Assembly: GCA_027025615.1 (NCBI GenBank)
Contig: JALVQM010000300.1
Location: 1 to 35,156 of the forward strand
DNA length: 35,156 bases
Direction of reading: 5' to 3'
Source: Desulfobacteraceae bacterium
Lineage (GTDB): Bacteria; Desulfobacterota; Desulfobacteria; Desulfobacterales; Desulfosarcinaceae
Part shown: positions 2,392 to 29,444 of the stretch, one piece after another
Numbering within the stretch: the stretch's first letter is position 1
Layout of the letters: the number at the start of each line of letters is the position of its first letter
Made by a program: the position numbers and the translations under genes
The notes under the pieces: model-generated
What the model was told of the DNA's origin: nothing
The model's database searches: none
What the model saw: only the letters and a program-made list of their open reading frames with translations

Positions 2392-2424
2392 GTTAGATAG
2401 ATATTATTGACAGGAACTGGTAGG

Positions 2425-3231
2425 ATGACCAGATGTGAAGTCCCCAAAATATCCGCTACCATATTTAAAATCAAGCGGTACGCTATCCATGATGGACCTG
2501 GTATCAGGACCACTGTTTTTCTCAAAGGCTGCCCTTTGAGGTGTTTTTGGTGCCATAACCCTGAAGGACAGGCTTTCGAGCCCCAAGAAATCGCCGGGGG
2601 ACCGGCAACCGGAGGTAAACCCCAGATCGCAGGTTGGCCTGCAACTGTTGCCGAAATTATCTCCGAAATTGAAAAGGACCTTGTTTTTTTCGATGATTCA
2701 GGCGGTGGAGTTACTTTTTCCGGCGGCGAACCCCTGGCCCAACCTGATTTTCTGATCTCCCTGTTGGCTGCCTGCCGCCAACGCAACCTGCACACAGTAC
2801 TGGATACGTCCGGTTTTGCTGAACAGGAAACTTTCATGGCCGCTGCCAAATTGGCAGACCTGGTGCTTTTTGATCTAAAGGCAATGGATCCTGAACTGCA
2901 TCATAAGGTTACCGGGGTAGACAACCGCCAGATTTTGAAAAATTTTAATGCTGCCTGCCAGGCCGGGATCCCCATGCGGGTAAGGGTACCCCTGGTACCA
3001 TCGGTCAGCACCACTGCTGAAAACCTATCACACCTGGCCGATTTTCTCACGTCGCAACCCCTGATTTACCCTGTTGACCTGCTACCTTACCATGACATCG
3101 GCCTTGATAAATATCGCCGCCTGGGCCTGGGCAGCCGGATAAGAAAAATTGTCAAGCTCAGCGACCAAGAAATAAATCTGGCAAAACAAATTTTATCTGA
3201 CAGCAAACTTGAAGTCTCTATTGGAGGTTAA
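2425..3231 (+). CDS. hypE: Radical SAM glycyl-radical-enzyme activating enzyme (HypE-like)
   Basis: GCPLRCFWCHNPEG (CxxxCxxC), DGPGIRTTVFLKGCPLRC, GGGVTFSGGEPL, FDLKAMD. Directly upstream of the glycyl radical enzyme. The ORF track starts at TTG 2407; ATG 2425 is the alternative used here. Confidence 0.93.
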   Translation: MTRCEVPKISATIFKIKRYAIHDGPGIRTTVFLKGCPLRCFWCHNPEGQAFEPQEIAGGPATGGKPQIAGWPATVAEIISEIEKDLVFFDDSGGGVTFSGGEPLAQPDFLISLLAACRQRNLHTVLDTSGFAEQETFMAAAKLADLVLFDLKAMDPELHHKVTGVDNRQILKNFNAACQAGIPMRVRVPLVPSVSTTAENLSHLADFLTSQPLIYPVDLLPYHDIGLDKYRRLGLGSRIRKIVKLSDQEINLAKQILSDSKLEVSIGG

Positions 3232-3232
3232 A

Positions 3233-5596
3233 ATGACACCCCGTGTTTCAGCATTGCGCCAGCAAAGTCTTGAGGCCGTTCCGACCATTTCGGCTGAACG
3301 GGCCTTGCTGGTTACTGAGTTTTATCAAACCGGTATTGCCCAGAAGGTCTCGCCACCTGTCCAGCGGGCCATGGCTTTCAGGTACATCCTCGAAAACAAG
3401 ACAATCTATATCGGCGATGGAGAACTGATCGTGGGTGAGAGGGGACCGGCACCCAAAGCGACTCCCACCTATCCTGAAGTCTGCCTTCACAGCGAACAGG
3501 ATTTACAAATCCTCGACCAGCGCCCCAAGGTTCCCTTCAAAGTCAACCAGTCCACCTTTGAAGCCTATCGTCATAAAATAATACCATTTTGGAAGGGCAA
3601 GTCCATGCGCGAGAAAATCTTCGCCAGCATGGATCAATCATGGCTTGCCGCATACAAGGCCGGAATTTTTACCGAGTTCCAGGAGCAAAGAGCCCCCGGC
3701 CATACGGCCATGGGAGACAAAATTTATCACCTGGGCATGGATGACCTGAAAGCCCAAATCAAAGCCACAGGCGACAAACTGGATTTCGTTAACGATCCCA
3801 AGGCCCTGGACAAACTCGAACAGCTTAAGGCCATGACCATTGCCGCCGACGCGATCATCAAATACGCCCAACGCCATGCAAAGGTGCTGGCCCAAATGGC
3901 AGCCGGTGAGCAGGATCCGGACAGGAAAGCCGAACTGCTGGAAATGCATCGAATTTGCAACAAGGTCCCCCGTAAGGCACCTGAAACTTTCTGGGAGGCC
4001 CTCCAGTACTATTGGTTCGTGCACGTTGGAGTAATTACCGAGCTAAACCCCTGGGATGCTTTCAACCCCGGACGGCTTGACCAACATTTGTGGCCTTTTT
4101 ACAGGCGCCAGCTGGAAGACGGCAGCCTTTCTCCCGAACAGGCCCACGAGCTTCTATGTTGTTTCTGGATTAAGTTCAACAATCATCCTGCCCCTCCCAA
4201 GGTCGGTGTGACCGCTAAAGAAAGCAACACTTACGTGGATTTTGCCCTGATCAATCTTGGCGGAGTGGACCGTGAAAACCAGGATGCGGTCAATGAAGTT
4301 TCATACCTGATCCTTGATGTTATCCAGGAAATGCGTCTGCTGCAGCCTTCTTCCATGGTACAGGTAAGCAAAAAAAACCATGATCGTTTTCTGGCCCGGG
4401 CTTTGGAAATAGTCCGCACCGGTTTCGGCCAGCCATCGATTTTCAACACCGAAGCTATCGTTCAGGAGCTTATCCGCCAGGGCAAAAGAGTGGAAGATGC
4501 CCGTATGGCAGGTGCCAGCGGATGTGTCGAGGCCGGCGCTTTTGGCAAAGAAGCCTATTTTTTAACCGGTTACTTTAACTTGCCAAAGGTTCTTGAAATT
4601 ACTTTGAACAACGGGGTAGACCCGCAAAGCGGTCTGAAAATAGGGGTTGAGACAGGTGATCCCGGCGACTGGCAAAATTTCCAGGAACTGGTGGAAGCCT
4701 TCAAAATCCAACTCCAACATTTTATAGACATAAAAATCAGGGGCAACAATATCATCGAAAGATTAAACGCCAAGTACATGCCGGTGCCCTTTTTGTCTTT
4801 GCTCATCGATGACTGCATTGCCAACTGCAAGGACTATAACGCTGGAGGTGCCCGTTATAACACATCATATATCCAGGGTGTTGGTCTGGGCAGTATCACA
4901 GATGCTCTGGCAGCCATAAAATATCAGGTCTTCGACACCCAGGCCACGTCGATGGAAAACCTGCTTGTTGCCCTGGAACGTAATTTCGAGGGTTATGCCG
5001 ATCTGCATTATGATCTTATCCACCACAGCCCCAAGTACGGCAACGACAACGAGTATGCCGATAACATATGTAAACTTGTTTTCGAAGTCTTCTTCTCGGC
5101 TGTGGACGGTCGTCCAAACACCCGCGGCGGATTCCATCGGATCAACCTTCTTCCGACCACCTGTCACGTATATTTCGGAAGCGTTATCGGTGCCACAGCC
5201 GACGGCCGCAAGGCCGGCACCCCCCTTTCAGAAGGAATATCGCCGGTCCAGGGCGCTGACCTGAACGGGCCAACGGCCGTTCTTAAATCGGCCTCAAAAA
5301 TTGACCACCTACGAACAGGCGGGACTTTGCTCAATCAGAAGTTTTTACCTCAGGTCCTTTCCGACCGGAAAGGAATCAACAAGCTGGTACACCTGATTCG
5401 ATCTTATTTTAAGCTCGACGGTCATCATATCCAATTCAACGTGGTCGACGGCAAGGTGCTGCGCAAAGCTCAAGAGCACCCTGAACAGTACCGCGACCTG
5501 ATTGTCAGGGTTGCCGGCTACAGTGATTATTTCGTTGACTTGACGCCCGAGCTGCAGGAAGAGATTATAAAACGAACTCAGCATGCAGAACTTTAA
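3233..5596 (+). CDS. hypD: Glycyl radical enzyme, trans-4-hydroxy-L-proline dehydratase (HypD)-like
   Basis: C-terminal glycyl radical motif RVAGYSDYF. Active-site loop GASGCVEAGAFGKEAYFLTGYFNLPKVLEITLNNG with the Cys-Val-Glu of HypD. NPWDAFNPGRLDQHLWPFY and QRAPGHT also match HypD as recalled. ATG at 3233 follows a GGAGG ribosome-binding site. Confidence 0.92.
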   Translation: MTPRVSALRQQSLEAVPTISAERALLVTEFYQTGIAQKVSPPVQRAMAFRYILENKTIYIGDGELIVGERGPAPKATPTYPEVCLHSEQDLQILDQRPKVPFKVNQSTFEAYRHKIIPFWKGKSMREKIFASMDQSWLAAYKAGIFTEFQEQRAPGHTAMGDKIYHLGMDDLKAQIKATGDKLDFVNDPKALDKLEQLKAMTIAADAIIKYAQRHAKVLAQMAAGEQDPDRKAELLEMHRICNKVPRKAPETFWEALQYYWFVHVGVITELNPWDAFNPGRLDQHLWPFYRRQLEDGSLSPEQAHELLCCFWIKFNNHPAPPKVGVTAKESNTYVDFALINLGGVDRENQDAVNEVSYLILDVIQEMRLLQPSSMVQVSKKNHDRFLARALEIVRTGFGQPSIFNTEAIVQELIRQGKRVEDARMAGASGCVEAGAFGKEAYFLTGYFNLPKVLEITLNNGVDPQSGLKIGVETGDPGDWQNFQELVEAFKIQLQHFIDIKIRGNNIIERLNAKYMPVPFLSLLIDDCIANCKDYNAGGARYNTSYIQGVGLGSITDALAAIKYQVFDTQATSMENLLVALERNFEGYADLHYDLIHHSPKYGNDNEYADNICKLVFEVFFSAVDGRPNTRGGFHRINLLPTTCHVYFGSVIGATADGRKAGTPLSEGISPVQGADLNGPTAVLKSASKIDHLRTGGTLLNQKFLPQVLSDRKGINKLVHLIRSYFKLDGHHIQFNVVDGKVLRKAQEHPEQYRDLIVRVAGYSDYFVDLTPELQEEIIKRTQHAEL

Positions 5597-26613: not shown

Positions 26614-27012
26614 GTGAAAAACACCTTGCATGATACTTGTGTTACCACTATGGTTCTGGCCATTGTTTCTGCTCTGATTCTCAACTGGCTGGTTTCACCG
26701 GCAGCTGCTGCAGGAATTGTCCTCGGCGCCGTCTTCAGTGCACTCAACTTCATTCTTATTCCGCTTGGCTGGCGTTTTTGCCTTGCAGCTGACCGCAAAA
26801 GGGCCAGCGCACTTTCACTGGCCAGTATTGTCGGGCGCTACCTGATTCTCAGTTTGCCTTTGGTTTTTTCCGCCAACAGCTCCAGGGTAAGTTTCCTGAC
26901 TACTGCTGTCGGGATCATGGCTGTTCAAATTTATCTTATCGCCTCGCACGCTGCCGGTAAGCTAAAACTGGCTCTGTTCGGGGAAACCAGGAAAGGCGAA
27001 TCCATTAAATGA
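26614..27012 (+). CDS. atpI: AtpI-like ATP synthase subunit I
   Basis: Four predicted hydrophobic segments and position directly before the a subunit; ATGA overlap with atpB. Confidence 0.75.
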   Translation: MKNTLHDTCVTTMVLAIVSALILNWLVSPAAAAGIVLGAVFSALNFILIPLGWRFCLAADRKRASALSLASIVGRYLILSLPLVFSANSSRVSFLTTAVGIMAVQIYLIASHAAGKLKLALFGETRKGESIK

Positions 27013-27683
27013 ACGACCTGGGCAAAGTTCATCAACTGGTTTTTAAGGCTGGAGATTTCAATTTTGTCTTCAATCTGGAAGCCATAGCAATGACTTTGAT
27101 TGTTATCATTGTTCTTTTGGCTTTTGCCATCCTGGCCACCCGCAAGCGCGATTTTTTGCCACGCCCGTTACAGGTGCTGGGGGAAATCTTTGTTTCCCAG
27201 TTCTACCAGTTGACTGAAGACGCTCTGGACAAGAAAATGGCGGCCAAATACGCACCCATGATCTGCTCTTTGTTCATGTTCATGCTGATTTCCAATTGGT
27301 TGGGAATCATCCCTCACCTTGAAGAACCGACCAAAGATTTAAATACGCCCCTCGGGCTTGGTATAATGGGCTTCTGTATCGCCCATTGGGCAGGTATAAA
27401 GACCAAAGGTTTCAAAAACTACATCAAAGAATATTTTCAACCGATTTTTTTCATGATGCCCCTCAATCTGATTGGAGAGCTGGCCAAAATCGTATCAATT
27501 TCGTTTCGTTTGTTCGGCAACATCATGGGTGGTTCGATCATTATCCTCGTGGTATCGCATCTTTGCTACAGTCTTGTTTTGCCTCCTTTTCTTAATGCGT
27601 TTTTCGGATTGTTCGTGGGAACCATTCAGGCATTTGTTTTTACTATGTTAACAGTGGTTTACATTTCGGTGCAAGTAAAATAG
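27009..27683 (+). CDS. atpB: F0F1 ATP synthase subunit a
   Basis: MFMLISNWLGIIPHLEEPTKDLNTPLGLGI and LIGELAKIVSISFRLFGNIMGGSIIILVV, with the essential stator Arg in SFRLFGN. Confidence 0.96.
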   Translation: MNDLGKVHQLVFKAGDFNFVFNLEAIAMTLIVIIVLLAFAILATRKRDFLPRPLQVLGEIFVSQFYQLTEDALDKKMAAKYAPMICSLFMFMLISNWLGIIPHLEEPTKDLNTPLGLGIMGFCIAHWAGIKTKGFKNYIKEYFQPIFFMMPLNLIGELAKIVSISFRLFGNIMGGSIIILVVSHLCYSLVLPPFLNAFFGLFVGTIQAFVFTMLTVVYISVQVK

Positions 27684-27692
27684 GAGACCACA

Positions 27693-28661
27693 TTGGACCT
27701 GATAGCCTCTGGAAAAATGGCTGCCTTTTTCAGCTCTGGAATATGCATTGGACTCGGTGCAGTGGGTGCCGCCATAGGTGAAGGTTATACGGCTGCTATT
27801 GCTAATCGAGCTGTTTCCAGGAGTCCTGAACGCTCGGGTGACATCCTCAAAAACATGCTGGTCGGGCAGGCGGTGGCTGAATCGGCTTCCATTTTTGCCC
27901 TGGTTATTGCCATCCTGTTGTTGTTCATGGATATTGAAGGTCATGGTGTTTTACAAAGCGCCGCTCTTCTCGGCGCTGGTTTGAGTATGGGATTCGGTGC
28001 CATGGGAGCCGGCATTGGAGCCGGTTTTCCCGGAGGTCAGGCTTGCCTTGGAATTTCACGTCAACCTCAGGTAACATCTTCACTGACGACCAACATGCTG
28101 ATAGGGTCGGCAGTCTGCCAGACACCGGCCATATTTTCCATGGTGGTTGCACTGATGCTCGTCTTCATGAATTTTGATCAAACACCGGCCGCTCCAGGGT
28201 GGGCTGCCATGTTGGGAGCCGGCCTGAGCACCGGTCTGGCTGCCATCGGGTCAGGCTACGGAGGGGGGCTGGCCGCCGGAGCAAGCTGTGAGGGCATTGC
28301 CCGTCAGCCAAGAACAGTCGGGCAGGTAACCACCACCATGCTGGTGGGGCAAGCTGTTGCTCAAACCCCGTCGATTTTCGGCCTTTTGGTCAGTTTTATA
28401 TTGATGTTCAAAACATTTGCGGCGTCTTCAGCCCTGGCTCCGGCAATGGGACTGCTTTCAGCCGGTTTGTGTATGGGCTTGGGGGGCATCGGTCCAGGCA
28501 TCGGCAATGGTTCAGCCGCTGAATCGGCCGTCAGGTGGGTTGCCCGTAACGTAGAGCAGTCCGATGTTCTGATGAGGCTGATGCTGGTGGGCCAGGCGGT
28601 TTCACAATCAACAGCTATTTATGCGATGGTAATCAGCCTGGTGTTGATATTTGTCGTCTAA
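27693..28661 (+). CDS. Four-hairpin fused F-type ATP synthase c subunit
   Basis: 322 aa made of four tandem c-like hairpins of about 80-81 aa with repeated GxGxGxG (TM1) and GQAVA(E/Q) (TM2) motifs. TTG start with GGAG ribosome-binding site. Lies between atpB and a canonical c subunit. Confidence 0.93.
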   Translation: MDLIASGKMAAFFSSGICIGLGAVGAAIGEGYTAAIANRAVSRSPERSGDILKNMLVGQAVAESASIFALVIAILLLFMDIEGHGVLQSAALLGAGLSMGFGAMGAGIGAGFPGGQACLGISRQPQVTSSLTTNMLIGSAVCQTPAIFSMVVALMLVFMNFDQTPAAPGWAAMLGAGLSTGLAAIGSGYGGGLAAGASCEGIARQPRTVGQVTTTMLVGQAVAQTPSIFGLLVSFILMFKTFAASSALAPAMGLLSAGLCMGLGGIGPGIGNGSAAESAVRWVARNVEQSDVLMRLMLVGQAVSQSTAIYAMVISLVLIFVV

Positions 28662-28687: not shown

Positions 28688-28936
28688 ATGGCTATCGAAG
28701 GTGCAGATCTGATTAAGGCAGCGGCTTTTCTAGGGGCAGGAATCTCCATGGGCCTGGGTGCAATAGGACCCGGCGTTGGCGAAGGCATGGTGGCAGCCAA
28801 GGCCTGCGAGGCCATCGGTAAAAATCCCAAGGAAGCCGGACTGTTGACCAGAACAATGCTGGTTGGCCAGGCAGTTGCAGAATCCACCGGAATTTACTCT
28901 CTGGTGATCGCATTGCTGTTGCTGTTTGTCGTTTAA
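28688..28936 (+). CDS. atpE: F0F1 ATP synthase subunit c (single hairpin, two-carboxylate motif)
   Basis: 82 aa: GAGISMGLGAIGPGVGEGMVAAKACEAIGKNPKEAGLLTRTMLVGQAVAESTGIYSLVIALLLLFVV. E32 and E65, with S66. Confidence 0.97.
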   Translation: MAIEGADLIKAAAFLGAGISMGLGAIGPGVGEGMVAAKACEAIGKNPKEAGLLTRTMLVGQAVAESTGIYSLVIALLLLFVV

Positions 28937-28991
28937 TCGGCCAATTTCCGGTCGTATTTCAAAAACATAGATTTTGCGGGGGACGCCCAGG

Positions 28992-29444
28992 ATGTCCATC
29001 GTCAGCAATATTGCCCTTATTTCCATCAACGCTACGCTGGTGGTACAAGTTCTCCTTTTTTTGCTCCTGGTATGGTTGCTCAACCGGATCATGATCAAAC
29101 CACTGCGCCTGATTATGGCGGAACGAAAAGAGCATCTTAAACGCATAGAAAGCGACATTCTGTCGGCCCGCCAGGACCACCAGCAGCTGGAGGAAGAAAT
29201 ACACGCCCAGGAAGCTGAAGCCCGACGGGAGGGACTCCGGATCAGGCAGGAGCTTGAAACCGATGGCTTCAACGCTGCCGCAGAAATCCTGGATCAGGCT
29301 CGCCGGCAAATCGCGTCCCAAAGAGAAAAAACCATGGCAGATATCAATAAAGCCCTGGATAAAGTCCGCTCTGAAATGGAAACCGAGGCCCAGCAGCTTG
29401 CCACCAGGATTATGGAGATTGTGCTTAACCGGAGGCTGTCATAG
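28992..29444 (+). CDS. F0F1 ATP synthase subunit b' (b-type stator)
   Basis: N-terminal TM helix (VVQVLLFLLLVWLLNRIMIKPLRLIMAERKEHLKRIE), then a long charged coiled coil. ATG 28992 preferred to the ORF-track start at 28974. Confidence 0.85.
   Translation: MSIVSNIALISINATLVVQVLLFLLLVWLLNRIMIKPLRLIMAERKEHLKRIESDILSARQDHQQLEEEIHAQEAEARREGLRIRQELETDGFNAAAEILDQARRQIASQREKTMADINKALDKVRSEMETEAQQLATRIMEIVLNRRLS

What the first reader, a model, noticed from the sequence alone, without database searches (positions are those of the whole stretch)
27693..28661. Four-hairpin fused F-type c subunit in which only the first hairpin keeps the ion-binding carboxylates
Seen directly: four tandem c-like hairpins (about aa 11-80, 88-161, 168-241 and 249-322). 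At the essential TM2 carboxylate position, hairpin 1 has E63 (GAA 27879-27881), while hairpins 2-4 have Q143 (CAG 28119-28121), Q224 (CAA 28362-28364) and Q305 (CAA 28605-28607). Spacing is 80/81/81 aa. At the TM1 co-ligand position they have E30, A110, G191 and N272. The pattern is the same in all three later hairpins and the frame is intact, so it looks selected rather than like random decay. Established knowledge: V-type and Acetobacterium woodii c1 subunits have two hairpins with one ion site, giving lower ion-to-ATP ratios. I do not recall a described F-type c subunit with four hairpins and one site. Inference: incorporation into the ring would dilute ion sites strongly, favouring ATP-driven ion pumping or operation at high ion-motive force.
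Basis: partly seen in the sequence, partly recalled or inferred. Interest (0 to 1): 0.93.

Follow-up and report, generated by a model that had tools for sequence, protein, structure and literature searches.

The report
Multi-hairpin ATP-synthase rotor subunit, mostly siteless
Many sulfate-reducing and related bacteria make an ATP-synthase rotor protein of two to six fused units of which usually only one or two can carry an ion, always beside a normal rotor gene; this should change how many ions the motor needs per ATP, and runs against lab results in which one such blank unit killed the motor.

Summary
It is not an artefact. 132 distinct full-length relatives, nearly all from Desulfobacterota (closed Desulfosarcina widdelii genome included), have 2 to 6 hairpins. 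In 130/132 the blank hairpins form one unbroken block starting at hairpin 2; at non-first hairpins the site is Gln in 333, Glu in 70, Ser in 1. Blank and live hairpins are under equally strong purifying selection. A normal one-hairpin, two-carboxylate (Na+-type) c gene lies in the same cluster, nearly always next door, with a much stronger ribosome-binding site. In the window's order the cluster is an Fo module without F1 genes; in two other families c3, c4 and c6 sit inside complete F1Fo operons, some in genomes with one gamma gene only. Best reading: a hybrid rotor (few c_n, many c), as in Acetobacterium woodii but extended from one blank hairpin to up to five, lowering ions per ATP. Rotor incorporation and stoichiometry are inferred, not shown. 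New variant of a known kind.

The parts
27693..28661 (+). c4: fused four-hairpin F-type c subunit, 322 aa; site residues E30/E63, A110/Q143, G191/Q224, N272/Q305
   Evidence: AlphaFold2 pLDDT 94.5, pTM 0.90, helical throughout; best solved relative A. woodii c1, 4bem_J
28688..28936 (+). c: normal one-hairpin c subunit, two-carboxylate Na+-type site (GEG...AEST), strong SD GGAGG before ATG
27009..27683 (+). subunit a (atpB), with the conserved Arg in SISFRLFGN; its TAG stop overlaps the c4 ribosome-binding region
   Evidence: PF00119 E=5e-51, alignment, sequence
28974..29444 (+). subunit b'
   Evidence: PF00430
29434..30027 (+). subunit b
   Evidence: PF00430
26336..26596 (+). AtpQ-like (ATPase_gene1) small membrane protein
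   Evidence: PF09527
26614..27012 (+). AtpI/AtpR-like membrane protein
   Evidence: PF03899, below gathering cut-off

Best explanation
The gene encodes a fused c subunit that is built, together with the neighbouring one-hairpin c, into a mixed ('hybrid') Na+-type rotor ring. Each c_n brings one or more live sites and an unbroken arc of blank Gln hairpins, so the ring keeps its hairpin number and geometry but carries fewer ions per turn. With one c_n per ring the number of blank hairpins (1 to 5 across the family, 3 here) sets the ion/ATP ratio: for an 11-hairpin ring 8 ions per turn here (2.7 per ATP) and 6 (2.0) for c6. In the window's lineage the cluster encodes a spare Fo (a, c4, c, b', b) without F1 and most likely docks on the F1 encoded elsewhere, giving the cell two Fo gears on one F1; in other families it is the Fo of a complete F1Fo operon. 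Shown: gene, conservation, site pattern, partner c, operon contexts, selection. Inferred: incorporation in the ring, stoichiometry, Na+ specificity, F1 sharing, physiological direction.
For: Complete operons (a - c_n - c - b' - b - delta - alpha - gamma - beta - epsilon) with c3 (L209, L211, L216), c4 (L215) and c6 (L210, L217, L218, L219); G258, G247, G388 and G408 have one gamma only. Partner c with strong SD. Blank hairpins contiguous from hairpin 2 in 130/132; TM1 acid present in 0/334 hairpins without a TM2 acid and in 66/70 with it. Purifying selection in blank hairpins. A. woodii precedent: 4bem has 9 c2 chains and 1 c1 chain, and its blank hairpin also reads Gln-Thr (C. aceticum c1 likewise, PMC7911925). 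Best PDB sequence hits are Na+ rings. Genomes with c_n in the order carry one more subunit a than gamma in 89/111, at least one more in 99/111, against 8/105 without. In four genomes with one a and one gamma the only a found is the c_n-linked one (G005, G127, G133, G209). Engineered double mutations are tolerated better when adjacent (PMC8809890), in line with a contiguous arc.
Against: A single E56Q in a fused c10 ring of Bacillus PS3 abolished synthesis, pumping and DCCD-sensitive hydrolysis (PMC8809890), so three to five Gln hairpins in a row may not be passable. No protein-level evidence. Stoichiometry rests on SD strength and analogy; c_n could also be translated by coupling to subunit a. 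A/V-type ATPases were not searched for in the 'single gamma' genomes.
Confidence: 0.62

Rival explanations
1. Ring of c4 only (for example three c4 = 12 hairpins, 3 ions per turn): an ATP-driven Na+ pump with about 1 ion/ATP able to build very steep gradients; the neighbouring c serves elsewhere or is a minor component.
For: F1-less module separate from the main I-a-c and F1 genes; the geometry 4 x 3 = 12 fits.
Against: c accompanies c_n and has the stronger SD; hairpin numbers 2, 3, 4, 5 and 6 interchange at least about 25 times on the tree of subunit a, which a homomeric ring of fixed size would not easily allow; c_n is in the only F1 operon of some genomes, where synthesis at about 1 ion/ATP (about 520 mV) is implausible.
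Confidence: 0.12
2. c_n is an assembly or size factor: the fused arc nucleates the c-ring or fixes its diameter and its orientation relative to gamma/epsilon, the loss of sites being a tolerated by-product.
For: Low predicted translation relative to c fits one per ring; strong purifying selection in hairpins without a site; frequent changes in hairpin number.
Against: Does not explain why the replacement is Gln in 333 of 334 blank hairpins, nor the joint loss of the TM1 acid and the single contiguous block.
Confidence: 0.15
3. The F1-less module is a stand-alone Na+ channel or leak, or a regulated brake, rather than part of an ATP synthase.
For: No F1 genes in the cluster in the window's order.
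Against: Homologous c_n clusters run straight into full sets of F1 genes in two other families; b and b', which hold F1 in known enzymes, are retained; in four genomes it carries the only a subunit found beside one gamma.
Confidence: 0.07

Closest known systems
Acetobacterium woodii / Clostridium aceticum hybrid rotor, subunit c1 (PDB 4bem)
   Same: F-type operon with one fused c and a normal c; hairpin 1 live, next hairpin blank with Gln-Thr; Na+-type site; best sequence and fold match of c4.
   Different: c1 has two hairpins with one blank; here 2-6 hairpins with up to 5 blanks, a two-carboxylate (Glu/Glu) rather than Gln/Glu site, and in the window's order a separate Fo without F1.
Fusobacterium nucleatum two-carboxylate Na+ c-ring (PMC3692424; PDB 3zk1)
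   Same: Glu in TM1 plus Glu-Ser in TM2, as in hairpin 1 of c4 and in the neighbouring c.
   Different: Single-hairpin c, homomeric 11-ring with a site in every hairpin.
V-type c / NtpK (E. hirae 2bl2) and archaeal multi-hairpin K subunits (Methanocaldococcus, 3 hairpins; Methanopyrus kandleri, 13)
   Same: Tandem fused hairpins; NtpK has one site per two hairpins (PMC2359735).
   Different: V/A-type enzymes; M. kandleri keeps a site in all 13 hairpins; by sequence and gene context c4 is F-type.
N-ATPase (alternate F1F0)
   Same: Additional F-type Fo in bacteria that already have an ATP synthase; an AtpQ-like gene is present.
   Different: N-ATPase operons carry their own F1 genes (D. widdelii example, L116) and a normal c; that is a separate third cluster in these genomes.

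Membership tests
F-type c subunit (ATP-synt_C) | c-type hairpins scoring above curated cut-offs | tested here: met
   PF00137, four stretches; TIGR01260 140 bits against a cut-off of 44
F-type c subunit (ATP-synt_C) | Encoded among F-type Fo genes (a with conserved Arg, b, b') | tested here: met
F-type c subunit (ATP-synt_C) | Acidic ion-binding residue in TM2 of every hairpin | tested here: not met
   only hairpin 1
Hybrid F/V rotor (A. woodii type) | Fused multi-hairpin c and single-hairpin c in one F-type cluster | tested here: met
   c4 at 27693-28661 and c at 28688-28936; both kinds found together in 128 loci
Hybrid F/V rotor (A. woodii type) | Fused subunit has exactly two hairpins with one site | tested here: not met
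   four hairpins here; 2-6 in the family
Hybrid F/V rotor (A. woodii type) | Both subunits assembled into one ring | not testable with these tools
   needs purified enzyme
V-type c subunit | Two hairpins, part of a V/A-type operon | tested here: not met
Two-carboxylate Na+ c-ring | Glu in TM1 and Glu-Ser in TM2 | tested here: met
   hairpin 1 of c4 aligned with 3zk1 and 1yce; the neighbouring c has the same residues
Two-carboxylate Na+ c-ring | Na+ transport | not testable with these tools
   biochemistry needed
N-ATPase | Operon atpDCQRBEFAG with its own F1 genes | tested here: not met
   no F1 genes around the cluster

The most novel reading that the evidence does not exclude
A rotary ATP synthase with a built-in variable gear: evolution adds, removes or blanks whole hairpins of one fused rotor subunit, giving a contiguous ion-free arc of one to five hairpins (up to roughly 165 degrees) that the motor crosses each turn without ion transport. 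In the window's lineage two interchangeable Fo sectors of different ion/ATP ratio, and perhaps different ion, share one F1.
Probability: 0.4. Interest if true: 0.93.

Novelty: new variant of a known kind. Interest (0 to 1): 0.84.

Why it matters
The ion/ATP ratio is a central constant of bioenergetics and is normally changed by ring size. Here nature seems to change it by blanking positions within a fused arc, many times over in one phylum, including organisms with closed genomes and cultured isolates. It puts a long-standing question within reach: how many consecutive positions of a rotary motor can lack the carboxylate and the motor still couple? In an engineered ring one was too many (PMC8809890); these organisms appear to live with up to five, some with no other F1. 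The F1-less Fo modules also raise the untested idea of swapping Fo sectors on one F1.

Tried and rejected
Assembly artefact or frameshift: rejected, closed genomes and many independent species agree. Pseudogene or decay: rejected by dN/dS and the invariant Gln. V-type identity: rejected by profile hits and gene context. N-ATPase: rejected, that is a separate cluster. Simple one-way loss of sites from three to one: not supported; on the tree of the neighbouring subunit a, hairpin number and site number each change at least about 25 times, in a tree with many weak forks. Hairpin-by-hairpin identity did not settle which hairpin arose from c, though hairpin 4 is closest to the neighbouring c where it keeps Glu. 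A first, cruder count of start codons and SD motifs was replaced by the pairing-energy comparison. Literature searches found no description of F-type c subunits with three or more hairpins; the review most likely to mention distribution (Brandt and Mueller 2015) and the A. woodii structure paper are not held. No proteomic evidence for c4 was found.

Full report
OBSERVATION. The open reading frame 27693-28661 (+) is intact and encodes 322 aa. Pfam places four ATP-synt_C domains in it. AlphaFold2 with 43 aligned sequences gives a confident all-helical model (pLDDT 94.5, pTM 0.90); the best match by fold and by sequence among solved structures is Acetobacterium woodii c1, 4bem_J.

SURROUNDINGS. 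The cluster reads AtpQ-like (26336), AtpI-like (26614), a (27009), c4 (27693), c (28688), b' (28974), b (29434), followed by a cytidylate-kinase-like gene. No F1 gene is near. In the same genome a second a and c pair lies on contig C136 and the F1 genes (b', b, delta, alpha, gamma, beta) on contig C71. The c beside c4 has Glu in TM1 and Glu-Ser-Thr in TM2; the c on C136 has Gln in TM1 and Glu-Ser-Leu in TM2, so the two Fo sectors probably differ in ion-site chemistry.

DISTRIBUTION. A scan of genome contigs gave 60 loci, almost all Desulfobacterales, including the closed Desulfosarcina widdelii genome. In the order 111 of 216 genomes have a c_n, and in a phylum-wide sample more appear in about ten further families. 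Reading the fetched loci gave 132 distinct full-length proteins: 4 with two hairpins, 14 with three, 90 with four, 18 with five and 6 with six. Sites per protein: 1, 2 or 3. The commonest pattern (TM1/TM2 residues) is EE|SQ|GQ|NQ; the extreme is EE|AQ|GQ|NQ|NQ|NQ.

RULES OF THE FAMILY. In full-length proteins hairpin 1 keeps the TM2 Glu. Hairpin 2 is Gln in 131 of 132. In 130 of 132 the blank hairpins are one block starting at hairpin 2. At non-first hairpins the residue is Gln 333 times, Glu 70, Ser once. The TM1 acid is absent from all 334 hairpins that lack the TM2 acid and present in 66 of 70 that keep it, so a site is kept or given up as a unit. These counts are not corrected for relatedness, but on a tree of the neighbouring subunit a the hairpin number and the site number each change at least about 25 times (quick tree, many weak forks). 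Between close relatives dN/dS is about 0.03-0.1, no weaker in blank hairpins than in hairpin 1.

PARTNER c. A one-hairpin c with a two-carboxylate site lies in the same cluster, almost always directly downstream (in G042, L122, c follows a, and c4 has moved behind b). Upstream of c there is nearly always a strong Shine-Dalgarno; c_n has a weak one or follows the stop of a directly. Pairing energies favour c in 126 of 128 pairs. Inference: c is made in excess, and c_n is a minority part of the ring. In the A. woodii crystal the ratio is nine to one (chains of 4bem), with 10 sites per ring (PMC7793690).

LINK TO F1. In two families outside the window's order the c_n cluster continues directly into delta-alpha-gamma-beta-epsilon: c3 in L209, L211 and L216; c4 with one site in L215; c6 with one site in L210, L217, L218 and L219. 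Of these genomes G258, G247 (a single contig), G388 and G408 have one gamma gene only, so their only F1 belongs to a c_n operon. In the window's order the cluster lacks F1: genomes with c_n have at least one more a than gamma in 99 of 111 cases against 8 of 105 without c_n. In four genomes with one a and one gamma (G005, G127, G133, G209) the only a found is the c_n-linked one; they are drafts, so absence of a second a is not proven, although G127 and G200 of one genus agree. The simplest reading is that the F1-less module works with the F1 encoded elsewhere. This is inferred.

MECHANISM. The Na+ F-rings characterised up to that paper have 11 hairpins (PMC3692424). One c4 in such a ring leaves 8 sites, 2.7 ions/ATP; c6 leaves 6, or 2.0. 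At 50 kJ/mol for ATP the needed ion-motive force is 141 mV for a full 11-ring, 194 mV with c4 and 259 mV with c6; a ring of c4 only would need about 518 mV (arithmetic under stated assumptions). Such a rotor spends fewer ions per ATP when the ion-motive force is high, and pumps against a steeper gradient in reverse. In an engineered Bacillus PS3 ring a single Gln killed all activity, while two conservative Asp substitutions were better tolerated next to each other than apart (PMC8809890). The contiguous arc agrees with the second result and conflicts with the first, so subunit a, the ring or F1 of these enzymes must differ in a way that lets the arc pass, or c_n is not in the working ring. Six Desulfobacteraceae strains make the Na+-pumping Rnf2 complex constitutively (PMC11887813), so a Na+ circuit for such an Fo exists in related organisms.

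VERDICT. Real, conserved and selected; a strong extension of the hybrid-rotor idea. Confidence in the hybrid-rotor reading 0.62; the one-c_n-per-ring detail is weaker. Nothing here is shown at protein level.

Noticed in passing
27681-27695: c4 starts at TTG, also in its nearest relative (L007), with the SD overlapping the stop of subunit a; most relatives start with ATG and have hardly any SD.
   Followed up: yes
L174 (G352): A two-hairpin c with both sites intact (EE|EE) beside a normal c: a possible duplication intermediate.
   Followed up: no
L122 (G042): Gene order a-c-b'-b-c4: the fused subunit has moved behind b.
   Followed up: no
L062: Three-hairpin c_n (EE|SQ|GQ) in a contig labelled Candidatus Methylomirabilis, outside Desulfobacterota; transfer or mislabelled bin.
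   Followed up: no
L112 (G000:C71): What looks by eye like a bactofilin gene lies directly upstream of b'-b-delta-alpha-gamma-beta in the window's genome.
   Followed up: no
L164, L158: Rare exceptions: Ser instead of Gln in hairpin 4 (L164), and a live hairpin 3 followed by a blank hairpin 4 (EE|GQ|EE|SQ, L158).
   Followed up: no
2407-5596: Looks by eye like a glycyl radical enzyme with its activase; not searched against a family library.
   Followed up: no
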